36,617 bases of DNA from positions 1 to 36,617 of the forward strand of contig CANUDF010000010.1 of assembly GCA_947857085.1 (NCBI GenBank), written 5' to 3'. A program made the position numbers and the translations under genes. The DNA is from Candidatus Gastranaerophilales bacterium. GTDB lineage: Bacteria; Cyanobacteriota; Vampirovibrionia; Gastranaerophilales; Gastranaerophilaceae. The notes under the pieces are model-generated. The model saw only the letters and a list, made by a program, of their open reading frames with translations. It did no database searches and was not told the origin of the DNA. This document shows positions 1,851 to 33,564 of the stretch, one piece after another. Position 1 is the stretch's first letter; every line of letters starts with the position of its first letter.

Positions 1851-3134
1851 TTATGAATACATTTGATCTTCGTAATATTCCATTTCAAGATGTCCTATAA
1901 CAATAGTATCACCGTCTTTTACACCTTGTTTTTTAAGCTCTTCAAATACCCCCATACCGGTCAATATATTTTGTAATCTTAAAATCTGTTCAGTATTACG
2001 CGCATCAGTAACAGCCGCAAGACGTTTTATTTTTCCTCCTTCAACAATGTAAGTATCCTTTGCAGCTTTATAAATTTCATAAGCACTATCATCATTGTTA
2101 TAAGCGTCTAAATCTTCTTCGACGACAATATCGGATTGATGTTTTTCGATTTCATCTACTTTTAATGACATAAAATCAACAAGTTTATCGATATTTTCGC
2201 CTGTAACAGCAGAAATCATAAATACATCTGAAGAAACATGTTTAAATTCATCATATAATTCTTTTTTCCTGTTTTCATCAATAGCGTCAATTTTGTTCAA
2301 AGCAACTATTTGATAAAGATTAGCAAGTTTTTCAGAATGTTTTTCCAACTCGGAATTAATAACTTTGTAGTTTTCCATAGGATTTTCAGATGTTGAGTCA
2401 ACTAAATGCACCAAAAATCTACAGCGCTCAATATGGCGTAAAAAGTCATGGCCAAGTCCCACACCCTCGCTTGCTCCTTCAATTAATCCCGGTATATCAG
2501 CAACCACATAGCCGTCACCGGAACGCTTTCTTACAACCCCGAGATTTGGAATTAACGTAGTAAACGGGTAATCTGCAATTTTAGGTTTTGCAGAAGAAAT
2601 TCTGCTTATAAGCGTCGATTTGCCAGCGTTCGGCATACCAAGCAAACCTACATCTGCAATTAATTTAAGTTCAAGCTCTAACTCGCGTTCAATACCCGGT
2701 TCACCCGGTTCGCAAAATTGCGGCGCACGTTTTTGTGCAGTAGCAAATCGTGCATTACCTCTGCCGCCTCTGCCACCTTTTGCTACAAGCACTTTTTGTT
2801 CATGTTCAATTAAATCCGCAATAGCATTTCCTGTTTTTAAATCCCTGACAACAGTACCAACAGGAACTTTTATTAACAAATCTTTTGCACATTTGCCGTG
2901 CATATTTTTTATACTTCCGTTTTCACCGCTTTCAGCCTTAAAAACGGATTTGTATTTAAAATCCATAAGAGTAGACATATTTTCATCTGCAATCAAATAG
3001 ACATCACCGCCGGAGCCGCCGTCACCGCCGGCCGGTCCGCCTTTATCAACGTATTTTTCCCTGCGCCAGGCAACCATTCCGTTTCCGCCGCGTCCTGAAA
3101 TAATTCTTATTTTTGTTTTGTCCAAAAATTGCAT
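1851..3134 (-). CDS. obgE: Obg-family ribosome-assembly GTPase
   Basis: 427 residues, full length. Residues 1-158 are the glycine-rich Obg fold (GRGGNG, GGPAGGDGGSGG, GGRGGRGNARF). The GTPase domain starts about 160 with the P-loop GMPNAGKS (166-173), switch FTT at 191-193, DIPGL at 213-217 and NKID near 288. The C-terminal OCT domain (about 345-420) contains YIVEGGKI and a VKDGDTIVIG segment. Obg binds the 50S subunit and couples ribosome maturation to GTP and stress signals. ATG 3134 has AAGAGG about 8 bases upstream. The gene is divergent from tsaD, and the -35 of the tsaD promoter overlaps its first codons. Confidence 0.98.
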   Translation of the reverse strand: MQFLDKTKIRIISGRGGNGMVAWRREKYVDKGGPAGGDGGSGGDVYLIADENMSTLMDFKYKSVFKAESGENGSIKNMHGKCAKDLLIKVPVGTVVRDLKTGNAIADLIEHEQKVLVAKGGRGGRGNARFATAQKRAPQFCEPGEPGIERELELELKLIADVGLLGMPNAGKSTLISRISSAKPKIADYPFTTLIPNLGVVRKRSGDGYVVADIPGLIEGASEGVGLGHDFLRHIERCRFLVHLVDSTSENPMENYKVINSELEKHSEKLANLYQIVALNKIDAIDENRKKELYDEFKHVSSDVFMISAVTGENIDKLVDFMSLKVDEIEKHQSDIVVEEDLDAYNNDDSAYEIYKAAKDTYIVEGGKIKRLAAVTDARNTEQILRLQNILTGMGVFEELKKQGVKDGDTIVIGHLEMEYYEDQMYS

Positions 3135-3157
3135 TTATTTTCCTCTTTGTATACAAT
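3129..3157 (+). promoter_or_regulatory. Leaderless promoter of tsaD
   Basis: -35 TTGCAT (3129-3134), 17-base spacer, -10 TACAAT (3152-3157). Six bases then separate the hexamer from ATG 3164, so the predicted +1 is the A of the start codon. No Shine-Dalgarno sequence precedes that ATG. The -35 overlaps the start of obgE on the other strand. Confidence 0.6.
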
Positions 3158-3163
3158 AATACT

Positions 3164-4204
3164 ATGAAAATGATAAAAAATACATTATTTAGCAAAACAC
3201 CTGTATGTATAGGTCCGGAAAGTGGATACGATAATTATATTATGGCTATTGAATCAAGCTGTGATGAAACAGCCTGCGCAATAGTTAAAAACGGACGAGA
3301 AGTTATATCAAATGTTGTTGCTTCACAAATAAAAACTCACGCACAATACGGCGGAGTTATTCCTGAGATTGCAGCAAGAGAACACTTAGAATCTATTAAC
3401 GTTGTAATAGATGAAGCCTTTAAACAAGCAGATATGAAGCCTAAACAAATAACAGCATTTGCGGGGACAGTAGGCCCCGGGCTTGTAGGGTGCCTGCTTG
3501 TCGGATTAAATGCTGCCAAGACGCTGGCTCTCGTTCATGACAAACCGTTTATAGGTGTTAACCACCTTAATGCACATCTTTGCGGAAATTATATTGATAC
3601 TGATTTAAACCCGCCTTACATAGCGCTTCTGGTAAGCGGCGGGCACACACAGATTATAGATGTCAAATCATATTCCGAGCAGCAAATAATCGGGGAAACT
3701 ATTGATGACGCTGTCGGAGAAGCATATGACAAAGTTGCAAGATTAATCGGATTGCCGTATCCGGGCGGACCTGTTTTAGATAAACTGGCAAAAGAGGGCA
3801 ATCCTAATGCATTTAAGCTTCCCGAAGGTAAAGTTGACGGATATAATTTCAGTTTCAGCGGCTTAAAAACAGCTGTCTTAAGACTTGTAAAATCATTTGA
3901 CGGAAAGGAATTACCTGTAAATGATATATGCGCAAGTTTTCAAGAATGTGTTTCTTCAACATTATTCAAAAAAGTTAAAAAAGCACTTGAAGAAAGCGGT
4001 TATAAACAGGTTGTTATAGCAGGCGGAGTTGCGGCAAATTCCGAAATCCGCAGAAAAATATTTGAACTTGAAAAAGAGGGGTACAGAGTTAATGCGCCTG
4101 CAATGAAATATTGCACAGATAACGCTGCAATGGTAGCTTCTTGTGCTTACTTCAACACAAATACTTTTGATGATGTCGATGTTGAGGTTTTCTCTAGAGC
4201 TTAG
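3164..4204 (+). CDS. tsaD: tRNA N6-adenosine threonylcarbamoyltransferase TsaD
   Basis: TsaD transfers threonylcarbamoyl from TC-AMP to A37 of ANN-decoding tRNAs. Seen here are the MAIESSCDETACAIV N-terminal ASKHA motif, GGVIPEIAAREHLE, the metal-binding HLNAH, LVSGGHTQI, the DDAVGEAYDKVARLIGLPYPGG segment and the terminal AGGVAANSEIR and CTDNAAM motifs. Homology to the family begins near the ATG at 3242, so the 3164 start gives an extra leader of about 26 residues (346 aa in total). 3164 is preferred because it sits exactly 6 bases after a good -10 with a -35 at 17-base spacing. 3242 is also 6 bases after a GATAAT and cannot be excluded. The 3' end overlaps the convergent gene by 11 bases. 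Confidence 0.95.
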   Translation: MKMIKNTLFSKTPVCIGPESGYDNYIMAIESSCDETACAIVKNGREVISNVVASQIKTHAQYGGVIPEIAAREHLESINVVIDEAFKQADMKPKQITAFAGTVGPGLVGCLLVGLNAAKTLALVHDKPFIGVNHLNAHLCGNYIDTDLNPPYIALLVSGGHTQIIDVKSYSEQQIIGETIDDAVGEAYDKVARLIGLPYPGGPVLDKLAKEGNPNAFKLPEGKVDGYNFSFSGLKTAVLRLVKSFDGKELPVNDICASFQECVSSTLFKKVKKALEESGYKQVVIAGGVAANSEIRRKIFELEKEGYRVNAPAMKYCTDNAAMVASCAYFNTNTFDDVDVEVFSRA

Positions 4205-4571
4205 CTCCGCTTAAGAAATCAAATGCTGCTTTTACAGAAGAACTGATTGTATTAATTGGTGATTCCGGGTTTAATCTTTCTGGTTTAACGGCAATATAAA
4301 CTGAATCACCCGTATCATGTTTAACTGCATAATCCGGAATATCTGTAATATGCTCATATCTAGATTTTGTCATTATGGCGAAATCCGTATATTGGCTGCC
4401 TTTATTTATTGGTTTAAACTTTACGTCAACGCCTTTTATCCCTGCCAGTTTATCAAGCTCTTCATACAAGTCTGAATTTTGAATTGATCTTTTCTGTACT
4501 TTAGAAAATTTGTTTGATAAATGAATATTGCTCAAACCTAATGCAGAACGTACACTTTTAACAGAAACCAT
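4194..4571 (-). CDS. Hypothetical small soluble protein
   Basis: 125 residues, no signal peptide or membrane segment, no domain recognised. It is basic at the N-terminus, with a central region of alternating charged and aromatic residues (YTDFAIMTKSRYEHI, DSVYIAVKPERL) and a C-terminal AAFDFLSGAKL helix. The start is firm: AGGAGG lies 8 bases before ATG 4571. It is transcribed alone, convergent with tsaD (11-base overlap). Probably lineage-restricted, since no known family is apparent. Confidence 0.7.
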   Translation of the reverse strand: MVSVKSVRSALGLSNIHLSNKFSKVQKRSIQNSDLYEELDKLAGIKGVDVKFKPINKGSQYTDFAIMTKSRYEHITDIPDYAVKHDTGDSVYIAVKPERLNPESPINTISSSVKAAFDFLSGAKL

Positions 4572-4654
4572 AAATATAACCTCCTGATCTTTAACTTTAT
4601 AAATTTATAGTAAATTAAATACAAGCGTTTTGTTAGGATTGGTTGTTATTATTT

Positions 4655-5629
4655 TTACATAACTTTACTCAACAAAGAGGCTTCTACAATCTGTTCTATT
4701 TTATCAATTATAAGCTTTTCAAAATTTATATGAAACGCATTATTAATTTCTTTGATAAAATAACATGGACTTGTAACATTAACTTCCAAAATTTTTCCAT
4801 CTACAACATCAAGACCAGCCATAAATATATTTCTTTTATTCAGTTCTCTGGCAAGTTTAGTAAACTCTTCTTTTTCCTGAGAACTCAAAACATCTTTCTT
4901 TATACATTCATCCTTGTGTTCATTGAACTTAAAGTCGTTGTTACTCGGAAGTTTTCTGACACAATAATCATAAACAGTATCACCGACAATCAATACCCTT
5001 TTATCACCGTAAACAGCAGACGGCAAATATTTTTGTACCATTACCAGATTTGTTCCGCTATTTGTAATTGTATTTATAACTGCAGCGGTATTCTTATCAT
5101 TTTCTTTCAGATAAAAAACGCCGGAGCCGAAACATTTGTTCAAAGGTTTTAAGATAATCTCGCTGTTCTGCTTCAAAAATTCAATAATATCTGCTTTGGA
5201 AGAAGTAACAATATTTTCAGGCATCAAATCATTGAATAATACAGCATGAAGTTTTTCATTAAAATCACGTATAGCTTTTGTATCATTTAATATTACGGTT
5301 TTACTCCTGTCAACAAAATCAAGAACATAAGTAGCGTTAATATAATCTAAATCAACAGGCGGATCCGGTCTAAACATAACAAGCTGAAAGTCTTCAATTT
5401 TGTGCTGAAGTTCATTTTCCTTGTCATAAAAAATATTATTGTCTTTGATAAAAGAGTTATAACCTGTACAACACGGGATTCCGGCTTTTAAAGATAACTT
5501 ATCAATAGTTGTTATAAAAACTTCATTACCGCGTTCCAAAAATTCTTTTATAAACCAAAAATTAGTCACAAGATTATTGAACTCAAAATACTTAAGTTCC
5601 ACCCTGTCAATAACAAATAAAATATTCAT
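4655..5629 (-). CDS. gshB: Glutathione synthase-like ATP-grasp ligase
   Basis: 324 residues, the usual GshB length. GshB ligates gamma-glutamylcysteine and glycine with ATP. Family marks seen are the N-terminal MNILFVIDRVE strand, MFRPDPPVDLDYINATYVLD (MRKDPPF-type motif), the IILKPLNKCFGSGVF lysine/glycine loop of the ATP-grasp domain, GDKRVLIVGD, and the terminal AGLDVVDGKILEVNVTSPC metal-binding strand. The glycine-rich loop is less glycine-rich than in E. coli (CFGSG for GMGG). No gshA is in the window. A GTGAGG site precedes ATG 5629. The gene lies 25 bases downstream of the UPF0173 hydrolase gene, likely in the same operon. A related ATP-grasp ligase is the alternative. Confidence 0.85.
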   Translation of the reverse strand: MNILFVIDRVELKYFEFNNLVTNFWFIKEFLERGNEVFITTIDKLSLKAGIPCCTGYNSFIKDNNIFYDKENELQHKIEDFQLVMFRPDPPVDLDYINATYVLDFVDRSKTVILNDTKAIRDFNEKLHAVLFNDLMPENIVTSSKADIIEFLKQNSEIILKPLNKCFGSGVFYLKENDKNTAAVINTITNSGTNLVMVQKYLPSAVYGDKRVLIVGDTVYDYCVRKLPSNNDFKFNEHKDECIKKDVLSSQEKEEFTKLARELNKRNIFMAGLDVVDGKILEVNVTSPCYFIKEINNAFHINFEKLIIDKIEQIVEASLLSKVM

Positions 5630-5654
5630 AATGCCTCACTTCACCTGAACAATA

Positions 5655-6317: not shown

Positions 6318-6363
6318 AAAATACTCCTTTTAATTTCCCCTTTAAATCTACCACGTTTTAATG

Positions 6364-6369
6364 TAAAAT
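6364..6369 (+). promoter_or_regulatory. -10 element of a leaderless ribD promoter
   Basis: TAAAAT ends 6 bases before ATG 6376, so +1 is predicted at the A of the start codon. A weak TTTAAA lies 17 bases upstream (6341-6346). No Shine-Dalgarno sequence is present between this element and the gene. Confidence 0.5.
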
Positions 6370-6375
6370 ACAATT

Positions 6376-7410
6376 ATGCAACAAAAGTATATGAAAAAGT
6401 GCATAGAACTTGCAAAAAAAGCTGAGGGGCTGACTTCCCCAAACCCTCTTGTAGGCTGTGTTATAACAGATGAATTTGATAACATAATTGCAACAGGTTA
6501 TCACCATAAATACGGTGACAATCATGCAGAACGCGACGCTCTCTTAAAAATCAATAAGGGCGAGGGAGAGACTCTCTATGTAAATTTAGAGCCCTGTTCT
6601 CATTTTGGGAAAACACCGCCTTGTACAGATATTATTATAGAAAAAGGGATTAAAAATGTTGTAATCGGTATGCTAGACCCAAACCCCTCTGTATCTGGCG
6701 TTGATATACTAAAAGAAGCTGGTATTGACGTTACAACAGGAATACTTGAAGACGAATGCAAAAAACTTAATGAAGTATTTATCACAAACATGCGCGACAA
6801 AAAAACTTTTATCGCAATAAAAACAGCAGCAACCTTAGATGGCAAAATCGCCACCTCAACAGGGTCTTCAAAATGGATTACATCAGAAAAGGCTCGCGAA
6901 GAAGTACGGAAAATCAGAAATAAATATGACGCTATAATGACAAGCTCAACTACTGTTATTGCTGACAACCCGACTATGGAACACAGAAAAAAAATAATAA
7001 TAGACAGGGAACTTAAGACTAATTTAAATTCTAAAATATATCAGCAGGGAGAAATATTTATTTTTAACGAAAAAACAGAAAACAGGTCAAGAAACATAAA
7101 TTTTATTAAAACACCGGTAAAAGATGGAAAAATAAGCCTAGAATTTGTTTTTGAAAAGCTTTACCAATTAGGCATAATGAGCATCTTAATTGAGTGCGGC
7201 GGAAAACTTAACGGAAAAGCTCTCAAATATGCGGATAAAATTTATCACTTTATTGCTCCTAAAATAACAGGTGATAATTCGTGTAAATCATGTTTTGATT
7301 ATAAAAATATTACAGAGATTTCAGAATGCTCAAATTATAGAATTGATAGTGCCGAATTTTTCGGACCGGATATTTTATTAACATATTATCCAATAGGAAA
7401 AAGATTATAA
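6376..7410 (+). CDS. ribD: Bifunctional riboflavin biosynthesis deaminase/reductase RibD
   Basis: 344 residues in two domains. The N-terminal deaminase has the zinc site H50-A-E52 and P-C74-SHFGKTPP-C83, acting on the pyrimidinone intermediate after GTP cyclohydrolase II. The C-terminal reductase domain starts about residue 136 (TFIAIKTAATLDGKIATSTGSS, KWITSEKAREEVRKIR, a TVIADNPTM segment) and reduces the ribosyl side chain with NADPH. The DPNP-SVSG-VDIL loop is slightly shorter than usual. ATG 6376 is chosen over 6391 because the promoter spacing fits it and the N-terminal helix is needed. No other rib gene is adjacent; a MEMO1-family gene follows with its own promoter. Confidence 0.96.
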   Translation: MQQKYMKKCIELAKKAEGLTSPNPLVGCVITDEFDNIIATGYHHKYGDNHAERDALLKINKGEGETLYVNLEPCSHFGKTPPCTDIIIEKGIKNVVIGMLDPNPSVSGVDILKEAGIDVTTGILEDECKKLNEVFITNMRDKKTFIAIKTAATLDGKIATSTGSSKWITSEKAREEVRKIRNKYDAIMTSSTTVIADNPTMEHRKKIIIDRELKTNLNSKIYQQGEIFIFNEKTENRSRNINFIKTPVKDGKISLEFVFEKLYQLGIMSILIECGGKLNGKALKYADKIYHFIAPKITGDNSCKSCFDYKNITEISECSNYRIDSAEFFGPDILLTYYPIGKRL

Positions 7411-7412
7411 TC

Positions 7413-7421
7413 TGTTATAAT
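7413..7421 (+). promoter_or_regulatory. Extended -10 promoter, leaderless, for the MEMO1-family gene
   Basis: TGT-TATAAT: a perfect -10 hexamer (7416-7421) preceded by the TGn extension. Six bases then separate it from ATG 7428. There is no ribosome-binding site and no clear -35, as expected for an extended -10. Confidence 0.6.
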
Positions 7422-7427
7422 GCTTTT

Positions 7428-8159
7428 ATGAAAATAATACCCGCCGCACAAGGAATATTTTATCCTGAGACAAAAGAATTACTATTATCTTCGTTAAACC
7501 AGTATAAGGCTGAAATTTGTAATAGAGAAACAAACCTGATAATTGTACCGCACGCCGGATTGGAATATTCTGGACAATTAGCATTTCAAGCTTACAATTT
7601 AATTGAAAAAGACACGAAAGACTTTGTGATTATCGCACCTGCAATATACAGCAGGATATACGGATGCGTAACCTGTAATGAAGAGGCTTTTGAAACACCT
7701 CTGGGAGATATAAAAATAAAACCTGCTGAACTTGAGATAAATAATTCTATATTTGAATGCGAAAGTTCTTTAACAGTTCAATTGCCTATTATAAAATATA
7801 TTTTTCCCGAAGCTGCTGTAACACCTGTTATTTATGGTTGTGAAGACTATAAAAACATAGCCAAAATCATACAAAAATATATAAAACATAGTGCAGTCGT
7901 TATAGCAACCAATTTAAGCAGATTTGTACCTGAAAGAGAAGCTGTCAAGCTTGACGGACAAACCGCAAGAATGATAGAACGCAAACAGACACAGGATTTT
8001 GATAATGAACTTGCTGACGGGGCAGCCGGCATATGTGCTGCCATAGAGTATGCAAAAGAAAACAATATGGATTTTATACAGATTGGTCTTACAAATTCAT
8101 CAAAAATTAATGAAGATACCTCAAGCGTAGTAGGATATGGAGCCTGGGCATTAATCTAG
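7428..8159 (+). CDS. MEMO1 family protein (AmmeMemoRadiSam system protein B-like)
   Basis: 243 residues. The fold is recognised from IIVPHAGLEYSGQLAFQAYNLI (the PHAGxxYSG metal/active-site motif related to extradiol dioxygenases), a VIIAPAIYSRIYGC segment, VVIATNLSRF, LDGQTARMIE, GAAGICAAIEYAKENN and a C-terminal GYGAWAL. In other prokaryotes this family is often encoded with AMMECR1 and a radical-SAM enzyme; neither is seen in this window. The enzymatic role is not established. The 3' end overlaps convergent dnaX by 9 bases. Confidence 0.9.
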   Translation: MKIIPAAQGIFYPETKELLLSSLNQYKAEICNRETNLIIVPHAGLEYSGQLAFQAYNLIEKDTKDFVIIAPAIYSRIYGCVTCNEEAFETPLGDIKIKPAELEINNSIFECESSLTVQLPIIKYIFPEAAVTPVIYGCEDYKNIAKIIQKYIKHSAVVIATNLSRFVPEREAVKLDGQTARMIERKQTQDFDNELADGAAGICAAIEYAKENNMDFIQIGLTNSSKINEDTSSVVGYGAWALI

Positions 8160-9977
8160 CAGTTTGCCGTCAAATAAATCTACTACCATATTTACCATAT
8201 CAGAGTGCATAGACGTAAAGTTTTTTGCTTTAGAAAAAGTAGCCGTTTCTCTGGCATCTTGAATTTCTTCATCAGAAACAATTTCCGCATCCGGAGTTTT
8301 TTCTTCTCTAACGGGCTCAGCTGATGGCGGAGCCGCTTTAGGCTTTGGGGCTGCCGCCTTTACCGGTTTATCGTCCGGCTGCGGAAGCCGCACAAGCACA
8401 TTTGAGTCACTCTGGGCAAATAGATTGTTTACAGCATCAGTTAAAATTTTACGCTTATTACCTTCTACAAATTGCTTTAAAAGATTTTCACTGTTAATGC
8501 TTATAACAACACTTTCAGGTGACAATTCCACAGGATTAGCCCACTGTTTTAAAAGTGATTTTGTCGGAGGACTGGAAATATTATCAAGCAATTTGCCCCA
8601 CAAAACTGAAATATCAGCAGATGAATCAGCAGATTGCGCTTTAGGCATAGGTGCAAAATCCTCAACAATTTGCGGCTCCGGCTTGACACTTTCAGCAGGT
8701 TTCGCCGGTTCCTGCATAACAGGTTCAGTCTTTTTAGGTTCCGGCTTATGAATAATTTCAGGCTTTGAAACCGGTGCCGGCGGAGTTTTATAAGAAGGTC
8801 CGTGAGGTGCAGAGTGAATTTGAGCACTTTCCAGTACATTAATACGTTTTTGCAAATCAGCTAATGAAGTATTTTCACTTAAATTTGCAAGGTCAATAAT
8901 ACCGACCTCCAGCCAGAGTCTCGGATTGTTTGTCAATTTAACTTCTTTAATATAATCTGCGCATTTATCAATAAGTGAAACAATCTGATGGGTTTCTATA
9001 TTTTCTGATTGTCCTTTTAAGGCTTTTAACTGCGCTTCATTCAATTGTGTAAGTTCAAAAATAATCTCCTGCCTGCAATTTTTAACAATAAGCAAATTTT
9101 TCAGGTAATCAAGAAGATTAGAAAGAATTTGAACTGGTTCATTTCCTGAATTATAAACATTTTCAAGCATTTCGATTGCATCTTGCGGTTTTGAAGCAAT
9201 AACAGCGTCGGAAAGTTTGTTCAAAACATCAAAAGAAATTCTGCCGAGAAGTTTATTGATATCTTCCGTATCGATTGCATTTTCACCGCCTAAGATACTT
9301 AGCTGATCAAGCAATGCAATACTGTCGCGCATACCGCCTGCTGAGTTTTTGGCAATGGTGAATAAAGCATCATCTGTTATGTTAATTTTTTCAACATCGG
9401 AAATATAACGCAGGTGTTTTACAATATCATCCGTTGTAATTCGTCTGAAATCAAATCTCTGGCAGCGGCTTTTTATTGTGTCCAAAACTTTGTGAACTTC
9501 TGTTGTTGCCAGAATAAAAATTACATTTTCAGGCGGTTCTTCAAGAGTTTTTAACAATGAATTAAACGCCGTATTTGAAAGCATATGAACTTCATCAATA
9601 ATATAAATTTTGTACTTTCCGTAAACAGGAGCATAAAGTATTTTTTCAAGAATATTCTGGGTGTCTTCTACTTTTCTGTTACTTGCCGCGTCGATTTCAA
9701 TAACATCCATAGGAACAGCATTTGCAATATCAACACAGCTTTCGCATTCCCCGCAAGGAGAAATTGTAGGACCGTTTTTACAATTTAAAGACTTTGCAAA
9801 AATACGTGCGGTGGAAGTTTTGCCGGTTCCTCTGGGACCTGTAAATAAGTATGCATGAGAAATTTTATTCAGCGCAATCGCATTGGATAACGCATTCTTT
9901 ATATGTTCCTGACCGACTAATTCTTCAAGTTTTTGCGGTCTGTATTTACGATATAAAGGTATATATTTTTCATTCAT
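8151..9977 (-). CDS. dnaX: DNA polymerase III subunits gamma/tau
   Basis: 608 residues from ATG 9977 (MNEKYIPLYRKYRP). The AAA+ clamp-loader core has Walker A GPRGTGKT (47-54), a zinc module C66-x8-C75-x2-C78-x2-C81, Walker B DEVHML and sensor ATTEVHKVLDTIKSRCQRF. A Pro/Lys/Glu-rich linker at about 390-450 and a second acidic/Pro-rich linker near 555-585 flank a tau-like domain. It loads the beta clamp and, as tau, couples the polymerase to the helicase. An upstream in-frame start at 10013 is rejected because it precedes the family N-terminus and overlaps the promoter. No frameshift motif making gamma was identified. Divergent from ldcA. Confidence 0.97.
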   Translation of the reverse strand: MNEKYIPLYRKYRPQKLEELVGQEHIKNALSNAIALNKISHAYLFTGPRGTGKTSTARIFAKSLNCKNGPTISPCGECESCVDIANAVPMDVIEIDAASNRKVEDTQNILEKILYAPVYGKYKIYIIDEVHMLSNTAFNSLLKTLEEPPENVIFILATTEVHKVLDTIKSRCQRFDFRRITTDDIVKHLRYISDVEKINITDDALFTIAKNSAGGMRDSIALLDQLSILGGENAIDTEDINKLLGRISFDVLNKLSDAVIASKPQDAIEMLENVYNSGNEPVQILSNLLDYLKNLLIVKNCRQEIIFELTQLNEAQLKALKGQSENIETHQIVSLIDKCADYIKEVKLTNNPRLWLEVGIIDLANLSENTSLADLQKRINVLESAQIHSAPHGPSYKTPPAPVSKPEIIHKPEPKKTEPVMQEPAKPAESVKPEPQIVEDFAPMPKAQSADSSADISVLWGKLLDNISSPPTKSLLKQWANPVELSPESVVISINSENLLKQFVEGNKRKILTDAVNNLFAQSDSNVLVRLPQPDDKPVKAAAPKPKAAPPSAEPVREEKTPDAEIVSDEEIQDARETATFSKAKNFTSMHSDMVNMVVDLFDGKLLD

Positions 9978-9983
9978 GATATA

Positions 9984-9992
9984 ATTATAGCA
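9984..9992 (-). promoter_or_regulatory. Extended -10 promoter, leaderless, for dnaX
   Basis: On the minus strand, TGC-TATAAT (hexamer 9989-9984) is followed by 6 bases and then ATG 9977, so +1 falls on the A of the start codon. A weak TTGTCC lies about 18 bases upstream. No Shine-Dalgarno sequence is present. Confidence 0.6.
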
Positions 9993-17522: not shown

Positions 17523-18398
17523 TTATTTTTTCAACTTTTCAGGATACACATTCCATTTTATATTCGGATTTTTTCTGAACCATGTAAGCTGGCGTTTTGC
17601 ATAGCGCCGCGTATTCTGTTTTAATTTTTCTACGGCTTCCTGTAATGTCAAATCACCATCAAGATATGCAACCATTTCTTGATAGCCGATAGTATATAAT
17701 ATATTATCAATACGTCCATGTTTATTCAGCAGGGTCTTTGTTTCTTCAATGAGCCCATTTTCAAGCATTTTATCAACACGCGTATTAATACGCCTATAAA
17801 GTTCTTCTCTGGGATAGTTCAATCCAATCCATTCAACATCAAAATCCGGACTATTTTTCCCCCTGACCTCAGATATGCTCTTCCCGGTAGTTTTAACTAT
17901 CTCAATTGCTCTGATTAATTTCTTTTTATCATTAGGATCAATATTTTGTGCAGCTTCAGCATCTATTTTTTTTAAAATATCAAATAAATTATCAGTTTTT
18001 TTCAACCGGCTTCTTAGTTCATAATCAGGTTCAACTTCCGGCAAATCATAATTCATTAATAAAATATTTATATACAATCCCGTACCTCCAGTAACAATGG
18101 GTGTTTTACCGCGAGATAATATATCATTAATTATTCTCTTTGCCTCTTTAACATAAAGCCCTGCCGAATAATCCTGCTGAGGGTCCGCAATATCAATCAT
18201 ATGATGTGGGATACCAGAGCGCTCTTCAATTGTTGGTTTTGCGGTACCTATATCAAATCCTTTATATACAAGTCTTGAATCAGCTGAAATGATTTCGCCA
18301 TTCAACTGTAAAGCCAAATTTATTGAGTATGAAGTTTTTCCGCTGGCTGTAGGCCCGACAACTGCTATTACTTTATTCTTCTTCAAATTCCCTGTCAT
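17523..18398 (-). CDS. miaA: tRNA dimethylallyltransferase MiaA
   Basis: 291 residues. Seen are the P-loop VVGPTASGKTS near 14-24, DSRLVYKGFDIGTAKP, GIPHHMID, the GGTGLYI motif and the IGYQEMVAYLDG segment followed by the TRRYAKRQLTWFRKNPNIKW tRNA-binding C-terminus. It adds a dimethylallyl group to A37 of UNN-decoding tRNAs. The start overlaps the 3' end of the upstream membrane-protein gene by 26 bases and lacks a Shine-Dalgarno site, so translational coupling is likely. Confidence 0.97.
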   Translation of the reverse strand: MTGNLKKNKVIAVVGPTASGKTSYSINLALQLNGEIISADSRLVYKGFDIGTAKPTIEERSGIPHHMIDIADPQQDYSAGLYVKEAKRIINDILSRGKTPIVTGGTGLYINILLMNYDLPEVEPDYELRSRLKKTDNLFDILKKIDAEAAQNIDPNDKKKLIRAIEIVKTTGKSISEVRGKNSPDFDVEWIGLNYPREELYRRINTRVDKMLENGLIEETKTLLNKHGRIDNILYTIGYQEMVAYLDGDLTLQEAVEKLKQNTRRYAKRQLTWFRKNPNIKWNVYPEKLKK

Positions 18399-19206
18399 AA
18401 TATAAGAATATTAACATAACCAAGTAAACAAGAAAATAAAAGTAAATCACCATCATTACAAAATATAAAACAGGATTTATAATTGAAAAAGTATTTATAA
18501 AAGAAAGCACAAAATTAAGTACTGTCATAAATATAAATAACTTTATAGTCTTTCCAGGCTTTAAAAATATCTTTTTAATTGATTCAATTAAAGCGGCAAA
18601 AGGATTTTTTGTCTGAAAAACTATCTCAGGTATCCATAACAGAAATAAAAAGGACATTATAGTTGTAGAAACTAAAAATAACAAATTCCAGTTATTGAGC
18701 TTTATCAACTGCTCAAAAGATAGCGAATCCAAAAATGCTTTCATGTCAGAAGCAGATGTTAAAACACTCTTAAGCTGGTTAGGATCCAAATCTAAACTGC
18801 CTATAGTATGAATACCAAGCTGAAAAACAAGGGAACCTGCAACTGATATAATTAAAATAGAAAAAATAATCATACCGGAAAACGAAAGGAAATATTTTCC
18901 AATTCCTGATGGTATAGTTTTCAGCAAATTGAATGTAGCTTTTGTCTTATCAATATCTAACACAAAAACTTGTTTTGAAAGTTTAACAGCTTTTTTTACC
19001 ATATAAAACCATCCTGCAAAAAATGCTGCCGTCATAACAAGAATTGTAACTGAGGACAATAAGAGCAACGGCAATGAATTAACAGTTTCTCTGGAAAAAG
19101 CAATATATAAACTAAGCACCCACATAAAAATTATTAACGGCGGCGCAAGAATAATGTTATCATTTGTTATTTTTACCGTTTCTCTAAAAAGTTTCAGCAT
19201 ACTCAT
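18373..19206 (-). CDS. Polytopic membrane protein of unknown function
   Basis: 277 residues with about six hydrophobic segments (roughly 20-40, 46-70, 105-130, 175-200, 215-240, 245-270 counted from ATG 19206). A conserved-looking cytoplasmic stretch lies between the second and third (VKLSKQVFVLDIDKTKATFNLLK). No enzyme or transporter motif is recognised; the layout resembles DUF4013/glycerophosphodiester-membrane-domain-like proteins but is not assignable. GAGGTA lies upstream; ATG 19206 or ATG 19200 could be the start. It sits between the CoA-activase-related gene and miaA in a tight operon. Confidence 0.65.
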   Translation of the reverse strand: MSMLKLFRETVKITNDNIILAPPLIIFMWVLSLYIAFSRETVNSLPLLLLSSVTILVMTAAFFAGWFYMVKKAVKLSKQVFVLDIDKTKATFNLLKTIPSGIGKYFLSFSGMIIFSILIISVAGSLVFQLGIHTIGSLDLDPNQLKSVLTSASDMKAFLDSLSFEQLIKLNNWNLLFLVSTTIMSFLFLLWIPEIVFQTKNPFAALIESIKKIFLKPGKTIKLFIFMTVLNFVLSFINTFSIINPVLYFVMMVIYFYFLVYLVMLIFLYYDREFEEE

Positions 19207-23421: not shown

Positions 23422-23430
23422 TGATATAAT
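23422..23430 (+). promoter_or_regulatory. Extended -10 promoter, leaderless, for the ABC permease operon
   Basis: TGA-TATAAT (hexamer 23425-23430), then 6 bases, then ATG 23437. +1 is predicted on the A of the start codon. No Shine-Dalgarno sequence is present. Confidence 0.6.
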
Positions 23431-23436
23431 AAGTCT

Positions 23437-24309
23437 ATGTTTAAGTATTATGGTAAATATGCACCATATTTGTTTTTGTTACCTGCAGGACTTTTACTGG
23501 TAATCTTCTTTTTTATCCCGTTCTTTCAGACAATTGTTTTAAGTTTTCAAGATTACAGCAATAACATATACAATCCTGTTTTTGCAGGTTTACACAATTA
23601 TATCAGGCTATTTCAAACCCCTGTTTTTTATAAGGTTATGGCAAACACTTTTATTTATCTTATTGTTGCTGTGCCTATTCTTGCAATATTTCCGCTGTTA
23701 CTTGCCATACTGTTAAATCAGAAAATACGCGGGATAACCTTATACAAAATTTTAATATATTTGCCTGTAATTGTTTCGATTGTAGTTGCGGCAATTGCTT
23801 TTAAGTGGCTTTATGCAGAACAGGGAATTCTAAATTATATAGTAACATCACTTGGGTTCAACTCAATAGGCTGGCTGACAGATCCCAATTGGGCGCTTTA
23901 TTCCGTTGTCATAGTCACAATTTGGAAAGGTATCGGATACTATATGATGATTTACCTTGCGGCCTTAATGAGTGTTCCAAAAGAATTATATGAAGCCTGT
24001 GATATTGACGGGGCTGATTTTATAACCAAACATTTGACTGTAACCATTCCGCATATATTGCCGACAATTGCACTTGTTGTAACAATAAGTTCTATTTCCG
24101 CAATGAAAGTCTTTGCTGAAATTTATGTTATGACAAAAGGAGGCCCGTTAAATTCAAGCAAAACTATTGTTTATTATATTTATGAACGGGCATTTGAAAA
24201 TCTCGATTTGGGATATGCCTCTGCAATGGCTGTTGTTCTGCTTATAATCGTAATGATTTTTTCACTCATAAATATATTGTTCTTTGAAAGGAAAAAATAT
24301 CAGTTATGA
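23437..24309 (+). CDS. Sugar ABC transporter permease, MalF/UgpA type
   Basis: 290 residues with six predicted membrane helices. The family start YAPYLFLLPAGLLLVIFFFIPF and the EAA loop EACDIDGADFITKHLTVTIPHILPT (about 189-213), which docks on the ATPase, are clear. A LGYASAMAVVLLIIVMIFSLI last helix follows. The CUT1 class imports oligosaccharides or glycerol-phosphate derivatives. The second permease follows with an ATGA overlap. No binding protein or ATPase is encoded nearby, so these are supplied elsewhere; the substrate cannot be named. Confidence 0.93.
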   Translation: MFKYYGKYAPYLFLLPAGLLLVIFFFIPFFQTIVLSFQDYSNNIYNPVFAGLHNYIRLFQTPVFYKVMANTFIYLIVAVPILAIFPLLLAILLNQKIRGITLYKILIYLPVIVSIVVAAIAFKWLYAEQGILNYIVTSLGFNSIGWLTDPNWALYSVVIVTIWKGIGYYMMIYLAALMSVPKELYEACDIDGADFITKHLTVTIPHILPTIALVVTISSISAMKVFAEIYVMTKGGPLNSSKTIVYYIYERAFENLDLGYASAMAVVLLIIVMIFSLINILFFERKKYQL

Positions 24310-27230: not shown

Positions 27231-27244
27231 ATTTTGTAAAAAAG

Positions 27245-27332: not shown

Positions 27333-27361
27333 TTGATGTGAGAAAATTTTTAATATATAAT
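27333..27361 (+). promoter_or_regulatory. Leaderless promoter of the TPR/HAD operon
   Basis: -35 TTGATG (27333-27338), 17-base spacer, -10 TATAAT (27356-27361), then 6 bases to ATG 27368. No ribosome-binding site. This is the cleanest backbone example of the leaderless arrangement. Confidence 0.7.
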
Positions 27362-27367
27362 TTTGTT

Positions 27368-27937
27368 ATGAAAAAGATTTTAGCTATATTCACAATACTA
27401 ACAATAGGTATAAATGTTTGTTTTGCAGATGAACTTAATGACAAAATAAATATTTTTTATGCGGAAAATAACATTAAAGAAGCATTTAGTTTACTTTTAA
27501 GTATACCCGAAGAAAATCGTACTGCTCAAAATTGGCTTTTAATGGGTAATATTTTACAAGATGAAAGAAAAATTGATGAAGCTGCATTTATGTTTAATCA
27601 GGCAATTGCAGCTGATTCAAAATATTATAAAGCCTATTACAACTTAGGCAATATTTATATGCTTCAGGATAAGCCCAATATGGCAATAAAAGAATATAAA
27701 AAAGCATTAAAATACAATCCTGATTTTGCATATGGTTATTATAACCTTGGATGCGCATATCTTAAGATTGGAAAAATAAAATCTGCCAAATGGGAATTTT
27801 TCAAAGCAATTGACTTAAATAATCAGGTAGCGGATTTTCACTATAATCTAGCATACACTTTCAAGCAATTAAATAAGGAAAAGCAGGCTAAAACTTATCT
27901 AGAATACTACAATAAAATCATTGAACGGGAGCAATAA
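27368..27937 (+). CDS. Secreted TPR-repeat protein
   Basis: 189 residues. A signal peptide (MKKILAIFTILTIGINVCFA) precedes three to four TPR units (about 50-180), including the consensus segments YKAYYNLGNIYMLQDKPNMAI and FAYGYYNLGCAYLKIGKIKSA. Likely periplasmic. The upstream ATG at 27314 lies inside the promoter and is rejected; the signal peptide and promoter spacing both favour 27368. A HAD phosphatase follows after 7 bases. Confidence 0.85.
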   Translation: MKKILAIFTILTIGINVCFADELNDKINIFYAENNIKEAFSLLLSIPEENRTAQNWLLMGNILQDERKIDEAAFMFNQAIAADSKYYKAYYNLGNIYMLQDKPNMAIKEYKKALKYNPDFAYGYYNLGCAYLKIGKIKSAKWEFFKAIDLNNQVADFHYNLAYTFKQLNKEKQAKTYLEYYNKIIEREQ

Positions 27938-27944
27938 TTAATAA

Positions 27945-28616: not shown

Positions 28617-28767
28617 TGAGAGGGGAGATTCAAGATAAAATTATGAAAACTCTTGATATTCAGGCCTGACTTCAGTAGTTTTTTAATTGTTTAAAAATAA
28701 CATTTATAATTACCCTGTTAGCTAAGTTCAAAATATCCATGTGTATGGTACAGTTTCTTTGATAAAT

Positions 28768-30399: not shown

Positions 30400-32066
30400 A
30401 ACTAACAAACAGCAACTTATATGTGCATAAAGATGCAATACTTGACTTAAATAATACAGCCGATACAATTGAACAAAGTGCTGCAATTTATCTTGATACC
30501 TATGGTGTAATAAACAATATTGGGACTGTAAACTTTAACGAGGATGATATTTGGAACGGCAGGGTAAATAACACCGGCACACTTAATTTAAATAATATCA
30601 ATGCAAATAATGCAAAATTTTCCCATAGTGACGGCAGCCTTAATTTGAATAATAGTTCACAGCTTACAGTCAACAATGACAACAAAATAACCGGCGGGGA
30701 TATGAGTATAAATTCAGGCAGTACGTTAAATATCAGTAGTGGAAATTTTGCAGTCAATAACTTATCAATGAATAATGGTACAGTTAATTCATTAAACAAC
30801 ATAACTGAAGTCAGTAATATTGCTGATAGCTTTAATGTTGAAGACGGCGGAGCGCATTTTAATATTGATTTTGACGGTGATAAGAAACTTTCAGACCAAT
30901 ATCTTGCTGGAAACTTTACAGGAACAGGAACAATTTCAATCGACAAATATAATGTTTCCGGTGCCCCATATGACTATAGAATACCGTTTGACGTATTCAA
31001 CGGGAGCAACGTTGAGAACATGAATTTTGCAGCGACAAATGATCTAGTTAATACCCCGTTATACAGATATAGTCTTGTTTCCGAAGGAAGCGGCATTTAT
31101 TCGCTTATAAGAGGCACACAAAACCCCTCAATTAATCGTGGAGCAGAATCCGCGCAATCTGTTTTCTTAAACAATATTGGTGTAATCAATAAAATTTTTG
31201 AACACGTTTACATAGACAGTGAACAGTTAACCCAAATCAGAAAAAGCAAAAAAAACTTCAGTACAGTTTATATGCCATATCAAGACATAAACCATGAAGA
31301 TGGAAGCATTTGGTACAAGCCATATATAAGTTATGACAGATTTTCACTGCAAAACGGCAATATGATTTATAACACCTCTTACGGGTCTATTATAGGTTTT
31401 GACTTCCCTACACAGAAATTAAGAAATGAATGGAAATTTCTTCCGACAACATTCATAACATATCAGGGGGCAAGACAAGGCTCACACGGGGATAATTACT
31501 ATCAAAATGGCGGTATGGGTGGCTTTATGGGTACAATATTCAAAGGAGATTCAATATCTTCGCTTCTTGCATATGCAGGAGGCTACGGCAACGAAATGCA
31601 AGGCTATGGTTATGAAGATAAAACAGGGAACTGGTATGCTGGCGGGGCGGCAATCAGTGCATATAACTTTCACCCCAAGAAAAATATCATAATCCAACCG
31701 ATATTTTGGGCAACATATAATATTTTAGGTAAACAAAACTGGAGAAGCAGTTATGGCAATGTTCCAATGTCAACGGGATATTTAAACGGACTTGCAGTAT
31801 CACCAGGGTTAAATGCTTTTTATGGTACCGACAAATGGAGTATTTACGGTACAATTTCATATATATTCACAATAAACGACCATACAAAATCTTTTGCAGG
31901 TCCTGTGGAAATTGATTCTGCAAGATTAAAATACGGATTTTTACAATACGGTCTCGGCTATATAAGAACATGGAAAGATAGATTTCTCGCATATGGTCAG
32001 CTAACATTTAGACAAGGCGGCATGACAGGTGTAGGTTTCTGGGGCGGCATAACTTACAGGTTCTAA
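30363..32066 (+). CDS. Autotransporter C-terminal part: end of beta-helix and outer-membrane barrel
   Basis: 567 residues with no signal peptide. About 1-240 continue the Asn/Gly-rich helix. From about 300 the sequence turns into amphipathic strands with alternating aromatics (IWYKPYISYDRF, GYGNEMQGYGYEDKTGNWYAGG, WSIYGTISYIF) and ends YRF, with the terminal Phe of outer-membrane barrels. Its apparent start (MGANAQKTGG) is not a real start: no ribosome site precedes it, and adding one base to the G5 run joins EWG from the upstream frame to ANAQKTGGV. The two reading frames are therefore one gene. Confidence 0.8.
   Translation: MGANAQKTGGVIKLTNSNLYVHKDAILDLNNTADTIEQSAAIYLDTYGVINNIGTVNFNEDDIWNGRVNNTGTLNLNNINANNAKFSHSDGSLNLNNSSQLTVNNDNKITGGDMSINSGSTLNISSGNFAVNNLSMNNGTVNSLNNITEVSNIADSFNVEDGGAHFNIDFDGDKKLSDQYLAGNFTGTGTISIDKYNVSGAPYDYRIPFDVFNGSNVENMNFAATNDLVNTPLYRYSLVSEGSGIYSLIRGTQNPSINRGAESAQSVFLNNIGVINKIFEHVYIDSEQLTQIRKSKKNFSTVYMPYQDINHEDGSIWYKPYISYDRFSLQNGNMIYNTSYGSIIGFDFPTQKLRNEWKFLPTTFITYQGARQGSHGDNYYQNGGMGGFMGTIFKGDSISSLLAYAGGYGNEMQGYGYEDKTGNWYAGGAAISAYNFHPKKNIIIQPIFWATYNILGKQNWRSSYGNVPMSTGYLNGLAVSPGLNAFYGTDKWSIYGTISYIFTINDHTKSFAGPVEIDSARLKYGFLQYGLGYIRTWKDRFLAYGQLTFRQGGMTGVGFWGGITYRF
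30372..30376 (+). other. Approximate site of -1 frame change in the autotransporter gene (G5 run)
   Basis: The upstream frame reads GAA-TGG-GGG-CAA and the downstream frame GGG-GCA-AAT. One added G, or a -1 slip by the Gly tRNA on GGG (which re-pairs perfectly), restores one continuous protein. The run lies in TAGAATGGGGGCAAAT, a few bases after 30360. Whether it is slippage, variation or a sequencing indel cannot be told from one sequence. Confidence 0.6.
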
Positions 32067-32102
32067 GACTAATACAATACGCCTCTTGCCGTATTCAGCA
32101 AA

Positions 32103-32234
32103 TCAAATACAAAGTTTAATTACTATCGGAGAGAGTATCACTGAATTGCGTTCACAGCACTCTAATAATGCTTGTTTCATTTTGTCTTCCATATTTTTCT
32201 CACTTTCTTTTTTCACGAAAACACTTGTTTTCAT
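32103..32234 (-). CDS. Possible 43-residue peptide encoded inside repeat copy 1
   Basis: The frame on the minus strand reads MKTSVFVKK...MEDKMKQALLECCE and ends LCI. Its N-terminal two-thirds are encoded by the repeat that recurs at 33172. In the other copy, the two substitutions within MKTSVFVKK are both synonymous (AGT/AGC, TTC/TTT), and MEDKMKQALLECCE is identical. A 2-base indel breaks the frame between them there, leaving a 30-residue frame at 33122-33214. No good ribosome site is seen. It may be a fossil of a coding gene carried in the repeat. Confidence 0.3.
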   Translation of the reverse strand: MKTSVFVKKESEKNMEDKMKQALLECCERNSVILSPIVIKLCI

Positions 32235-32265
32235 GTTTCTTTACATTTCTACTTTCTATACTTGA
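32150..32265. repeat. Direct repeat copy 1 (upstream of higBA)
   Basis: Matches 33172-33290 in the same orientation. The first 43 bases are identical, and the following ~65 differ by six substitutions and a 2-base indel. The repeat ends at the -35 element of the toxin-antitoxin promoter (CTTGA). Confidence 0.9.
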
Positions 32266-32290
32266 CAACCGTAAGTTTACAGTTTATAAT
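32262..32290 (+). promoter_or_regulatory. Leaderless consensus promoter of higBA
   Basis: Perfect -35 TTGACA (32262-32267), 17-base spacer, perfect -10 TATAAT (32285-32290), then 6 bases to ATG 32297. The spacer carries GTAA-GT-TTAC (32271-32280), a short inverted repeat that could be the antitoxin operator. Confidence 0.8.
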
Positions 32291-32296
32291 ATATAT

Positions 32297-32575
32297 ATGA
32301 TTAAAAGTTTCAAACACAAAGGGCTTGAAAAATTTTATACGACAGGTAATACCAAAGGCATTCAGGCTATTCAAGCAAAAAAATTAAGACAATTACTCAC
32401 TATACTTAATGCAATGACTTCAACTGATGATTTAAAATTACCGTCACTTCGATTTCACCAATTACAAGGTCACAAAAAAAATCTTTATTCAATTACTGTT
32501 CAAGCTAACTGGCGTTTAACTTTTGAATTCGATAACGAAAATGTTTATATTCTTGACTATATCGATTACCATTAA
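32297..32575 (+). CDS. higB: HigB-type RelE/ParE-family toxin
   Basis: 92 residues, the usual HigB length. Family marks: the IKSFKHKGLEKFY start, KKLRQLLTILNAMTSTDDL helix, the LPSLRFHQLQGHKKNLYSI strand (killer-protein motif) and the RLTFEFDNENVYILDYIDYH C-terminus. HigB toxins are ribosome-dependent mRNA endonucleases. The toxin gene comes first, as is typical for higBA. A longer in-frame reading from 32168 runs through the repeat and promoter and is rejected. higA follows after 17 bases. Confidence 0.93.
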   Translation: MIKSFKHKGLEKFYTTGNTKGIQAIQAKKLRQLLTILNAMTSTDDLKLPSLRFHQLQGHKKNLYSITVQANWRLTFEFDNENVYILDYIDYH

Positions 32576-32592
32576 ACAGAAAGGATAACATT

Positions 32593-32877
32593 ATGGATAT
32601 GTATAACCCAACACACCCTGGTGAAATTTTAAAAGATTTATATCTACCGGATTATAATTTATCCGTTACTGCTTTTGCTTTAAAACTTGGTGTTTCAAGA
32701 ACAACTGCATCTGAACTTGTTAACGGCAAGAATGGTGTTTCTGCCGATATGGCTTTAAAACTTGCAAAAGCGTTCAAAACAACTCCGCAATTTTGGCTCA
32801 ATATGCAACAAACTTACGATTTGTGGCTGGCTAAACAACGTGTTGACCTCAACAATGTTGAAGTTATTGCATTGTAG
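32593..32877 (+). CDS. higA: HigA antitoxin (XRE-type DNA-binding)
   Basis: 94 residues. The family N-terminus NPTHPGEILKDLYLPDYNLS is followed by a helix-turn-helix (TAFALKLGVSRTTASELVNGKNGVS) and the PQFWLNMQQTYDLWLAKQ dimerisation helix. It neutralises HigB and represses the operon. AAAGGA lies about 7 bases before ATG 32593. Its 3' end overlaps a convergent fragment by 14 bases. Confidence 0.95.
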   Translation: MDMYNPTHPGEILKDLYLPDYNLSVTAFALKLGVSRTTASELVNGKNGVSADMALKLAKAFKTTPQFWLNMQQTYDLWLAKQRVDLNNVEVIAL

Positions 32878-33064
32878 ATAATTCGGCTCGATATGCCATA
32901 ACTTTGGCTTCAACCTCTTTTAATTTTTCTATATCATCCTCTGTTGCTGTGCCCTCAACTTTAGCATGCAACGGACGGATTGCCTGTGCATCCAGTTTGG
33001 CCGTTTCTGCATCTACATAAAAATTTTCCCCTTTGATTGCTCCCTCATAGTTTACTTCCGGCAC
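32864..33064 (-). CDS. Unidentified 66-residue ORF or gene fragment
   Basis: GTG-initiated frame with coding-like composition: ENFYVDAETAKLDAQAIRPL, then a charged helical C-terminus (DDIEKLKEVEAKVMAYRAEL). The frame opens only a few codons upstream of the GTG and has no ribosome site, so it may be the 3' end of a truncated gene. No family recognised. It is convergent with higA, inside the unit bounded by the two repeat copies. Confidence 0.35.
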   Translation of the reverse strand: MPEVNYEGAIKGENFYVDAETAKLDAQAIRPLHAKVEGTATEDDIEKLKEVEAKVMAYRAELSTMQ

Positions 33065-33171
33065 TATCTTATTTGTTAAATCTTATAGGGCTTAGAAAGA
33101 ATCTTTTACATAAATACTATATTATTTTCTTAATAATAAAGTTACCAAATTTAATTTGTAAAACAAACCAA

Positions 33172-33290
33172 GTTCACAGCACTCTAATAATGCTTGTTTC
33201 ATTTTGTCTTCCATGTTTTCCACATTTTCTTTTTTTTCACAAAAACGCTTGTTTTCATGTTTCTTTACATTTCTACTTTTTATTACTTGA
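33172..33290. repeat. Direct repeat copy 2 (upstream of hicAB)
   Basis: Second copy of the 32150-32265 repeat, starting GTTCACAGCACTC and ending at CTTGA of the hicA -35. The distance between copy starts is 1,022 bases, and the unit between them holds higBA and the 66-residue fragment. Confidence 0.9.
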
Positions 33291-33315
33291 TAATTGATAG
33301 CAAATATGCTATCAT
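33287..33315 (+). promoter_or_regulatory. Leaderless promoter of hicAB
   Basis: -35 TTGATA (33287-33292), 17-base spacer, extended -10 TGC-TATCAT (hexamer 33310-33315), then 6 bases to ATG 33322. The geometry is identical to that of higB. Confidence 0.65.
33295..33314 (+). promoter_or_regulatory. Palindromic operator in the hicA promoter
   Basis: TGATAGCA-AATA-TGCTATCA: a perfect 8-bp inverted repeat with a 4-base centre, filling the spacer and overlapping the -10. It is positioned for autorepression by the ribbon-helix-helix domain of HicB. Confidence 0.65.
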
Positions 33316-33321
33316 AATAGT

Positions 33322-33564
33322 ATGAGCAAACGAGAAAAACTGATACAAAAAATCCTTAAAGGAAATTCTGAAATTACACCGGGTGAAGCAAGAAAAATTC
33401 TTGAAAGCTTCGGTGATGCTGCAGAAGGACCCGCAGGAGGTAGCTCTCATTTAACTTTTAGAAAAGCAAATAGACCGTCAGTTACAATCGTTTTAACTCA
33501 AAATCCTTTAAAACCTTACATGGTTGCTAAAATACAGGCAGTATTAAAATTCGAGAGATACTAA
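33322..33564 (+). CDS. hicA: HicA mRNA interferase toxin
   Basis: 80 residues. The dsRBD-like HicA fold is recognised by the GEARKILESFG helix, GGSSHLTFRK with the catalytic His, and the terminal KPYMVAKIQAVL helix. HicA cleaves mRNA independently of translation. It has no Shine-Dalgarno site, in keeping with the leaderless promoter. hicB begins 1 base after its stop. Confidence 0.92.
   Translation: MSKREKLIQKILKGNSEITPGEARKILESFGDAAEGPAGGSSHLTFRKANRPSVTIVLTQNPLKPYMVAKIQAVLKFERY

What the first reader, a model, noticed from the sequence alone, without database searches (positions are those of the whole stretch)
3129..33324. A recurrent leaderless promoter class: -10 hexamer exactly 6 bases before ATG at eight genes
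Seen: tsaD (TACAAT), ribD (TAAAAT), MEMO1 (TGT-TATAAT), dnaX (TGC-TATAAT, minus strand), ABC permease (TGA-TATAAT), TPR gene (TTGATG-17-TATAAT), higB (TTGACA-17-TATAAT) and hicA (TTGATA-17-TGC-TATCAT) all have the hexamer ending 6 bases before the ATG and no Shine-Dalgarno site. Known: +1 is normally 7 bases after the hexamer, so each transcript would begin with AUG. Other genes in the window have clear AAGGAG sites, so two start classes coexist. Inferred: leaderless translation is a standing feature of this lineage, spanning housekeeping genes and toxin-antitoxin operons. I know of no such description for this group.
Basis: partly seen in the sequence, partly recalled or inferred. Interest (0 to 1): 0.8.

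Follow-up and report, generated by a model that had tools for sequence, protein, structure and literature searches.

The report
Leaderless gene starts in gut Melainabacteria
In this lineage of gut-dwelling, non-photosynthetic relatives of cyanobacteria, roughly one gene in twelve carries its promoter so close to the start codon that the messenger RNA should begin directly with AUG; this is a known way of starting genes, but I found no description of it for this group.

Summary
The window belongs to a Candidatus Gastranaerophilales genome. All eight sites exist as described. In 837 kb of the same genome, TATAAT-to-start-ATG spacing peaks at exactly 6 bases (34 sites, against a mean of 4.8 at other spacings; p about 5e-18). 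The class also has a pyrimidine at -1 (86%), almost no Shine-Dalgarno sites (3% vs 29%), a -35 element at 17 bp, more TGn extensions, and operon-first position. In relatives the -10 stays 6 bases upstream even where the start codon has moved: ribD 46/46 over five start positions, tsaD 70/80, higB 26/30. All 62 sampled genomes of the family show an excess at spacing 6 over spacing 9. The 62 sampled genomes with a photosystem gene show none (1810 vs 1743), and tsaD lacks the arrangement in 30 photosynthetic genomes. The best explanation is sigma-70-type promoters that start transcription at the A of AUG, giving leaderless mRNAs for about 7-9% of genes (housekeeping genes and higB toxins). 5' ends were not mapped. 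The mechanism is known (Actinobacteria, Deinococcus-Thermus); this is a new lineage for it. hicA's identity and conservation are weak.

The parts
3129..3163 (+). tsaD leaderless promoter: -35 TTGCAT 3129-3134, 17 bp, -10 TACAAT 3152-3157, N6, ATG 3164
   Evidence: 70 of 80 Gastranaerophilales orthologues keep TAnnnT at N6, including 30 of 32 whose ATG lies two codons later
3164..4204 (+). tsaD, 346 aa (frame open from TTG 3113, leaderless ATG at 3164)
   Evidence: Pfam TsaD 2e-96
6364..6375 (+). ribD -10 TAAAAT 6364-6369 plus N6
   Evidence: 46 of 46 orthologues keep TAnnnT at N6 over five start positions
6376..7410 (+). ribD, 344 aa
   Evidence: Pfam RibD_C 1e-32 and deaminase
7416..7427 (+). 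Memo gene extended -10 TGT-TATAAT (hexamer 7416-7421) plus N6
   Evidence: 17 of 20 orthologues at N6
7428..8159 (+). Memo-like gene, 243 aa
   Evidence: Pfam Memo 3e-27
9978..9989 (-). dnaX extended -10 TGC-TATAAT (hexamer 9989-9984) plus N6
   Evidence: 17 of 29 orthologues at N6 and 4 at N7
8151..9977 (-). dnaX, 608 aa from leaderless ATG 9977 (frame open from TTG 10013)
   Evidence: Pfam DNA_pol3_delta2 4e-47, DNA_pol3_gamma3
23425..23436 (+). ABC permease extended -10 TGA-TATAAT (hexamer 23425-23430) plus N6
   Evidence: the single orthologue found has TAAAAT at N6
23437..24309 (+). ABC transporter permease, 290 aa
   Evidence: Pfam BPD_transp_1 2e-15
27333..27367 (+). TPR gene promoter: -35 TTGATG 27333-27338, 17 bp, -10 TATAAT 27356-27361, N6
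   Evidence: 3 of 3 orthologues at N6
27368..27937 (+). TPR-repeat protein, 189 aa
   Evidence: Pfam TPR families
32262..32296 (+). higB promoter: -35 TTGACA 32262-32267, 17 bp, -10 TATAAT 32285-32290, N6
   Evidence: 26 of 30 HigB loci of the family at N6, many with full TTGACA at 17 bp
32297..32575 (+). higB toxin gene, 92 aa (longest frame opens at ATG 32168, but the Pfam domain fills the 92-aa product)
   Evidence: Pfam HigB-like_toxin 7e-23, residues 3-92
33287..33321 (+). 'hicA' promoter: -35 TTGATA 33287-33292, 17 bp, TGC-TATCAT (33310-33315), N6
   Evidence: only 2 of 9 HicA-family genes of the family with an ATG start have it
33322..33564 (+). small gene before a HicB-like gene, 80 aa, HicA-like by position only
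   Evidence: no Pfam or NCBIfam match
33566..33928 (+). HicB-like antitoxin, 120 aa, downstream gene of the pair
   Evidence: Pfam HicB_lk_antitox 1e-6, HicB

Best explanation
Gastranaerophilales have a second class of gene starts. A housekeeping (sigma-70-type) promoter (-35, 17 bp, often TGn-TAtaaT) is placed so that its transcription start is the A of the start codon. RNA polymerase then makes mRNAs that begin with AUG (at most a nucleotide or so of leader), without a Shine-Dalgarno site, and the ribosome starts at the 5'-terminal AUG. The class covers about 7-9% of genes, nearly all at the head of transcription units, and coexists with a larger Shine-Dalgarno class. Shown: promoter anatomy, spacing, sequence marks and conservation. 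Inferred: the exact transcription start and translation from a leaderless mRNA.
For: Spacing peak at exactly 6, p about 5e-18. In the spacing-6 class -1 is a pyrimidine in 86% (T 81%) vs 51% at other start ATGs; Shine-Dalgarno in 2.7% vs 29%; best -35 match at 17 bp. -35 of 4/6 or better at 16-18 bp: 31/73 vs 94/484 (p 4e-5); TGn: 23/73 vs 70/484 (p 7e-4). Leaderless-class genes are rarely within 20 bp of a co-directional upstream gene (6% vs 49%) (part of this follows from the room a promoter needs). Orthologues: ribD 46/46, tsaD 70/80, memo 17/20, dnaX 17/29, higB 26/30 at N6, with the -10 moving in step with the ATG. All 62 family genomes have N6 > N9 (7403 vs 3341); 62 photosystem-bearing genomes 1810 vs 1743. 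tsaD in 30 photosynthetic genomes: 0.
Against: No RNA 5' ends or proteomics are available for this lineage here, so the leader could be 1-2 nt (spacing 7 also has a modest excess). About 20 of the 73 sites are expected background. N9 was the only spacing control in the phylum-wide scan. My gene calls are simple open-frame calls on fragments.
Confidence: 0.9

Rival explanations
1. Chance: in AT-rich DNA, TATAAT-like hexamers fall 6 bases before ATGs by accident and the reader picked the good ones.
For: The bare pattern is not enriched in the window (33 found, 43 expected), and some hits lie inside genes.
Against: At real starts the spacing histogram has a single sharp peak at 6 in the whole sampled genome, in 62 of 62 relatives, and is conserved gene by gene.
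Confidence: 0.02
2. The promoters are real but give short-leader mRNAs (1-5 nt) rather than truly leaderless ones, with starts spread over spacings 6-8.
For: A smaller excess at spacing 7 (16 vs 4.8 for exact TATAAT), and dnaX orthologues at N7.
Against: The peak at 6 with a -1 pyrimidine in 86% points to the A of ATG as +1; spacing 8 shows no excess.
Confidence: 0.2
3. The -10 elements are secondary or internal promoters, and the main mRNA starts far upstream with a leader read by a non-Shine-Dalgarno route (for example ribosomal protein S1).
For: Some genes in the class lie co-directionally behind another gene, so read-through transcripts are possible; such initiation has been proposed for cyanobacteria (PMC5607370).
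Against: Strict spacing to the ATG under conservation, and the -10 moving with the ATG, would have no reason if translation used an upstream leader.
Confidence: 0.06
4. The arrangement belongs to mobile toxin-antitoxin modules and a few families, not to the lineage.
For: HigB genes, which are mobile, have it in 26 of 30 loci.
Against: Housekeeping genes in the class include tsaD, ribD, dnaX, mnmG, dnaG, tmk, radA, rimI, hemW and hisS. HicA-family genes mostly lack it (2 of 9).
Confidence: 0.03

Closest known systems
Bacterial leaderless genes with a TA-like signal about 12 bp upstream of the start (Zheng et al. 2011, PMC3160421)
   Same: TAtaaT-like box whose first T lies about 12 bp upstream of the start codon (here exactly -12 to -7), no Shine-Dalgarno, coexisting with Shine-Dalgarno genes; medium-GC groups there show the fuller TAtaaT consensus, as here.
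   Different: That survey lists no cyanobacterial genome with such genes and says many Cyanobacteria use neither signal. Here the non-photosynthetic relatives have it and the photosynthetic ones do not.
The -10 motif adjacent to ORFs in Deinococcus-Thermus (PMC12340547)
   Same: -10 motif 6-7 bp before the start codon; shown there by mutation and reporters to act as a promoter for leaderless mRNA.
   Different: In Deinococcus about 30% of ORFs, mostly without a -35. Here about 7-9% of genes, often with a -35 at 17 bp and a TGn extension.
Leaderless transcriptome of Mycobacterium tuberculosis (Cortes et al. 2013, PMC3898074)
   Same: TANNNT -10, leaderless mRNAs including most toxin-antitoxin pairs; several tRNA synthetase genes leaderless.
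   Different: There mapped by RNA sequencing, about a quarter of genes, no -35 and few TGn. Here no RNA data, and -35 and TGn are enriched.

Membership tests
Bacterial leaderless genes (TA-like signal class) | -10-like TAnnnT starting about 12 bp upstream of the start codon, far above chance | tested here: met
   Sharp peak at spacing 6; 144 vs 57 genome-wide
Bacterial leaderless genes (TA-like signal class) | No Shine-Dalgarno site upstream of the start | tested here: met
   2.7% vs 29% of other start ATGs
Bacterial leaderless genes (TA-like signal class) | First gene of its transcription unit | tested here: met
   Only 6% within 20 bp of a co-directional upstream gene vs 49% of Shine-Dalgarno genes; the class definition favours this in part
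Bacterial leaderless genes (TA-like signal class) | Signal conserved at orthologues with the same spacing | tested here: met
   ribD 46/46, tsaD 70/80, memo 17/20, dnaX 17/29, higB 26/30, hisS 19/30
Bacterial leaderless genes (TA-like signal class) | Transcription starts at the first base of the start codon | not testable with these tools
   Needs 5'-end mapping; indirect support from the -1 pyrimidine in 86%
Bacterial leaderless genes (TA-like signal class) | Translation starts at the 5'-terminal AUG | not testable with these tools
   Needs ribosome profiling or N-terminal peptides
Sigma-70 promoter | -35 element (TTGACA-like) about 17 bp upstream of the -10 | tested here: met
   Mean match peaks at 17 bp (2.58 vs 1.78); 4/6 or better at 16-18 bp in 31/73 vs 94/484
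Deinococcus-type -10 motif | -35 usually absent | tested here: not met
   -35 enriched here, so it works like the Deinococcus class but is not the same subtype

The most novel reading that the evidence does not exclude
Leaderless gene starts are an old feature of the phylum, present in Gastranaerophilales and in at least part of a second non-photosynthetic class, and lost in the line that became oxygenic Cyanobacteria.
Probability: 0.3. Interest if true: 0.6.

Novelty: new member of a known kind. Interest (0 to 1): 0.47.

Why it matters
It adds a major gut lineage to the short list of bacterial groups with a standing leaderless class, and places the difference inside one phylum, between photosynthetic and non-photosynthetic members. 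It also corrects gene starts (tsaD, dnaX and higB here would be called too long by the first-start rule), gives a sequence rule for predicting promoters and 5' ends in uncultured genomes, and offers pairs of orthologues (hisS) that appear to have switched between leaderless and Shine-Dalgarno starts.

Tried and rejected
Counting the bare pattern in the window: not enriched, so uninformative on its own. Asking whether leaderless starts avoid GTG/TTG: no excess at GTG or TTG, but Shine-Dalgarno starts are also almost all ATG (excess 187 vs 2), so no special AUG rule can be claimed. Reading the anti-Shine-Dalgarno end of 16S rRNA: no 16S gene found in the assembly. Whole-genome E. coli control: record not held, so photosynthetic cyanobacteria and other spacings were used as controls. 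A HigA operator in the higB promoter spacer: inverted repeats clear in some loci, but on average hardly above shuffles (arm 4.97 vs 4.16), so left as a lead. HicA as a conserved leaderless toxin: rejected (2 of 9).

Full report
What the window is. The window is one contig (C10, 36.6 kb) of a 1.75-Mb, 88-contig genome. TsaD relatives of 92-95% identity lie in genomes labelled Candidatus Gastranaerophilales, the gut lineage of non-photosynthetic relatives of cyanobacteria (Melainabacteria/Vampirovibrionia). The window is 33.7% G+C.

The observation. Pfam confirms seven gene names; the hicA name rests on the HicB-like gene behind it. The bare pattern is not enriched in the window (33 against 43 in shuffles), so only position relative to real starts is informative.

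Is it more than chance? In 837 kb of the same genome (771 open-frame gene calls), exact TATAAT before start ATGs occurs 34 times at spacing 6, 16 at spacing 7, and on average 4.8 times (max 11) at the other 39 spacings from 0 to 40. With one mismatch allowed in the three middle bases the counts are 73, 36 and 20.7. Poisson p for spacing 6 is about 5e-18 and 4e-19. GTG and TTG show no peak. Whole genome: 144 at N6 and 57 at N9. The excess corresponds to about 7% of sampled genes at spacing 6, about 9% if spacing 7 is added.

Independent marks of a start site at the A of ATG. In the spacing-6 class the base before ATG is a pyrimidine in 86% (T 81%), against 51% at other start ATGs. A Shine-Dalgarno core is present in 2.7% against 29%. 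The -35 match peaks at 17 bp. -35 elements of 4/6 or better at 16-18 bp and TGn extensions are about threefold enriched (odds ratio) over other -10-like hexamers. Class genes are rarely close behind a co-directional gene (6% within 20 bp against 49%), although the room a promoter needs contributes to that. Shine-Dalgarno starts form a clear second class with the usual spacing.

Conservation. In relatives the -10 keeps its 6-base distance even where the start codon has moved. ribD: 46 of 46 at N6 over five start positions. tsaD: 40 of 46 with the same start and 30 of 32 with a start two codons later. Memo 17 of 20; dnaX 17 of 29 plus 4 at N7. HigB genes from the family: 26 of 30 at N6, many with full TTGACA-17-TATAAT-N6-ATG. 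hisS: 19 of 30, and several of the more distant ones have a Shine-Dalgarno site instead, which suggests turnover between the two classes. HicA-family genes: only 2 of 9.

Distribution. In 146 genomes of the phylum, the ratio of N6 to N9 is 2.2 in the window's family (7403 to 3341; 62 of 62 genomes above 1). It is 1.04 in 62 genomes carrying the photosystem reaction-centre family PF00124 (1810 to 1743; 31 of 62 above 1). In a second, non-photosynthetic class some families show an excess (f5 213 to 95; f13 36 to 10; f9 24 to 6) and others do not (f3 20 to 19; f16 251 to 212). tsaD itself has the arrangement in 0 of 30 photosynthetic genomes and 0 of 16 loci of that second class. The N6/N9 index uses exact TATAAT only and would miss degenerate boxes in G+C-rich genomes.

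Which genes. Besides the window genes, the class contains mnmG, dnaG, tmk, radA, hydE, a D-aminoacyl-tRNA deacylase, rimI and mazG, hemW, a YifB-type ATPase, a LysR-type regulator, histidine kinases and prepilin-like genes, and hisS (named from its sequence; relatives).

Mechanism. Shown by sequence: a sigma-70-type promoter at a fixed distance from the start codon, without a ribosome-binding site, under conservation. Inferred: transcription from the A of AUG and translation of a leaderless (or nearly leaderless) mRNA. The strongest argument is that promoter and start codon move together, which has no purpose if translation uses an upstream leader.

Comparison with what is known. The same arrangement was predicted across bacteria by Zheng et al. 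2011 (PMC3160421), shown by mutation in Deinococcus (PMC12340547), and mapped in M. tuberculosis, where toxin-antitoxin pairs are mostly leaderless (PMC3898074). The 2011 survey found none in Cyanobacteria; Nakagawa 2017 (PMC5397173) mentions Cyanobacteria among phyla reported to have leaderless mRNAs. No paper in the held library contains both leaderless and Melainabacteria or Gastranaerophilales; most subscription papers are not in that library, so novelty for the group is likely, not proven.

Verdict. This is a known kind of gene start in a lineage where I found no description of it, with a sharp contrast to photosynthetic relatives. Mapped 5' ends remain the missing proof.

Noticed in passing
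window 32262-32290 and HigB loci L143, L149, L151, L153, L156, L166: Several higB promoters have inverted repeats between or overlapping the -35 and -10 (for example AACCGTTAGTTTACGGTT), a possible HigA operator; over all 30 loci the repeats are hardly above shuffles.
   Followed up: partly
window 18398-18410 (minus strand): miaA (IPP transferase) also has TATTCT-N6-ATG, but it overlaps the upstream co-directional frame and the box is poor, so it is probably a coincidence.
   Followed up: partly
G000 C2:66497, C15:25029, C24:34, C31:13257 (and C25:9909 with one change): The same 15-mer TATAATGCCTGTATG recurs, which suggests a repeated element or gene family carrying a leaderless-type start.
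   Followed up: no
L233, L236, L241, L248, L250 (hisS orthologues): In the more distant relatives hisS lacks the spacing-6 box, and in several a Shine-Dalgarno site stands in its place, a natural switch between the two start classes.
   Followed up: partly
L039 (JAMPCZ010000066.1): This contig is titled Muribaculaceae but carries a TsaD 85% identical to the window's and the same leaderless-type start; it looks like a mislabelled or misbinned Gastranaerophilales contig.
   Followed up: no
genome handles G004, G010, G018, G032, G038 (f5), G013 (f9), G026, G044 (f13): A second, non-photosynthetic class of the phylum also shows an N6 excess, although its tsaD genes do not have the arrangement.
   Followed up: partly
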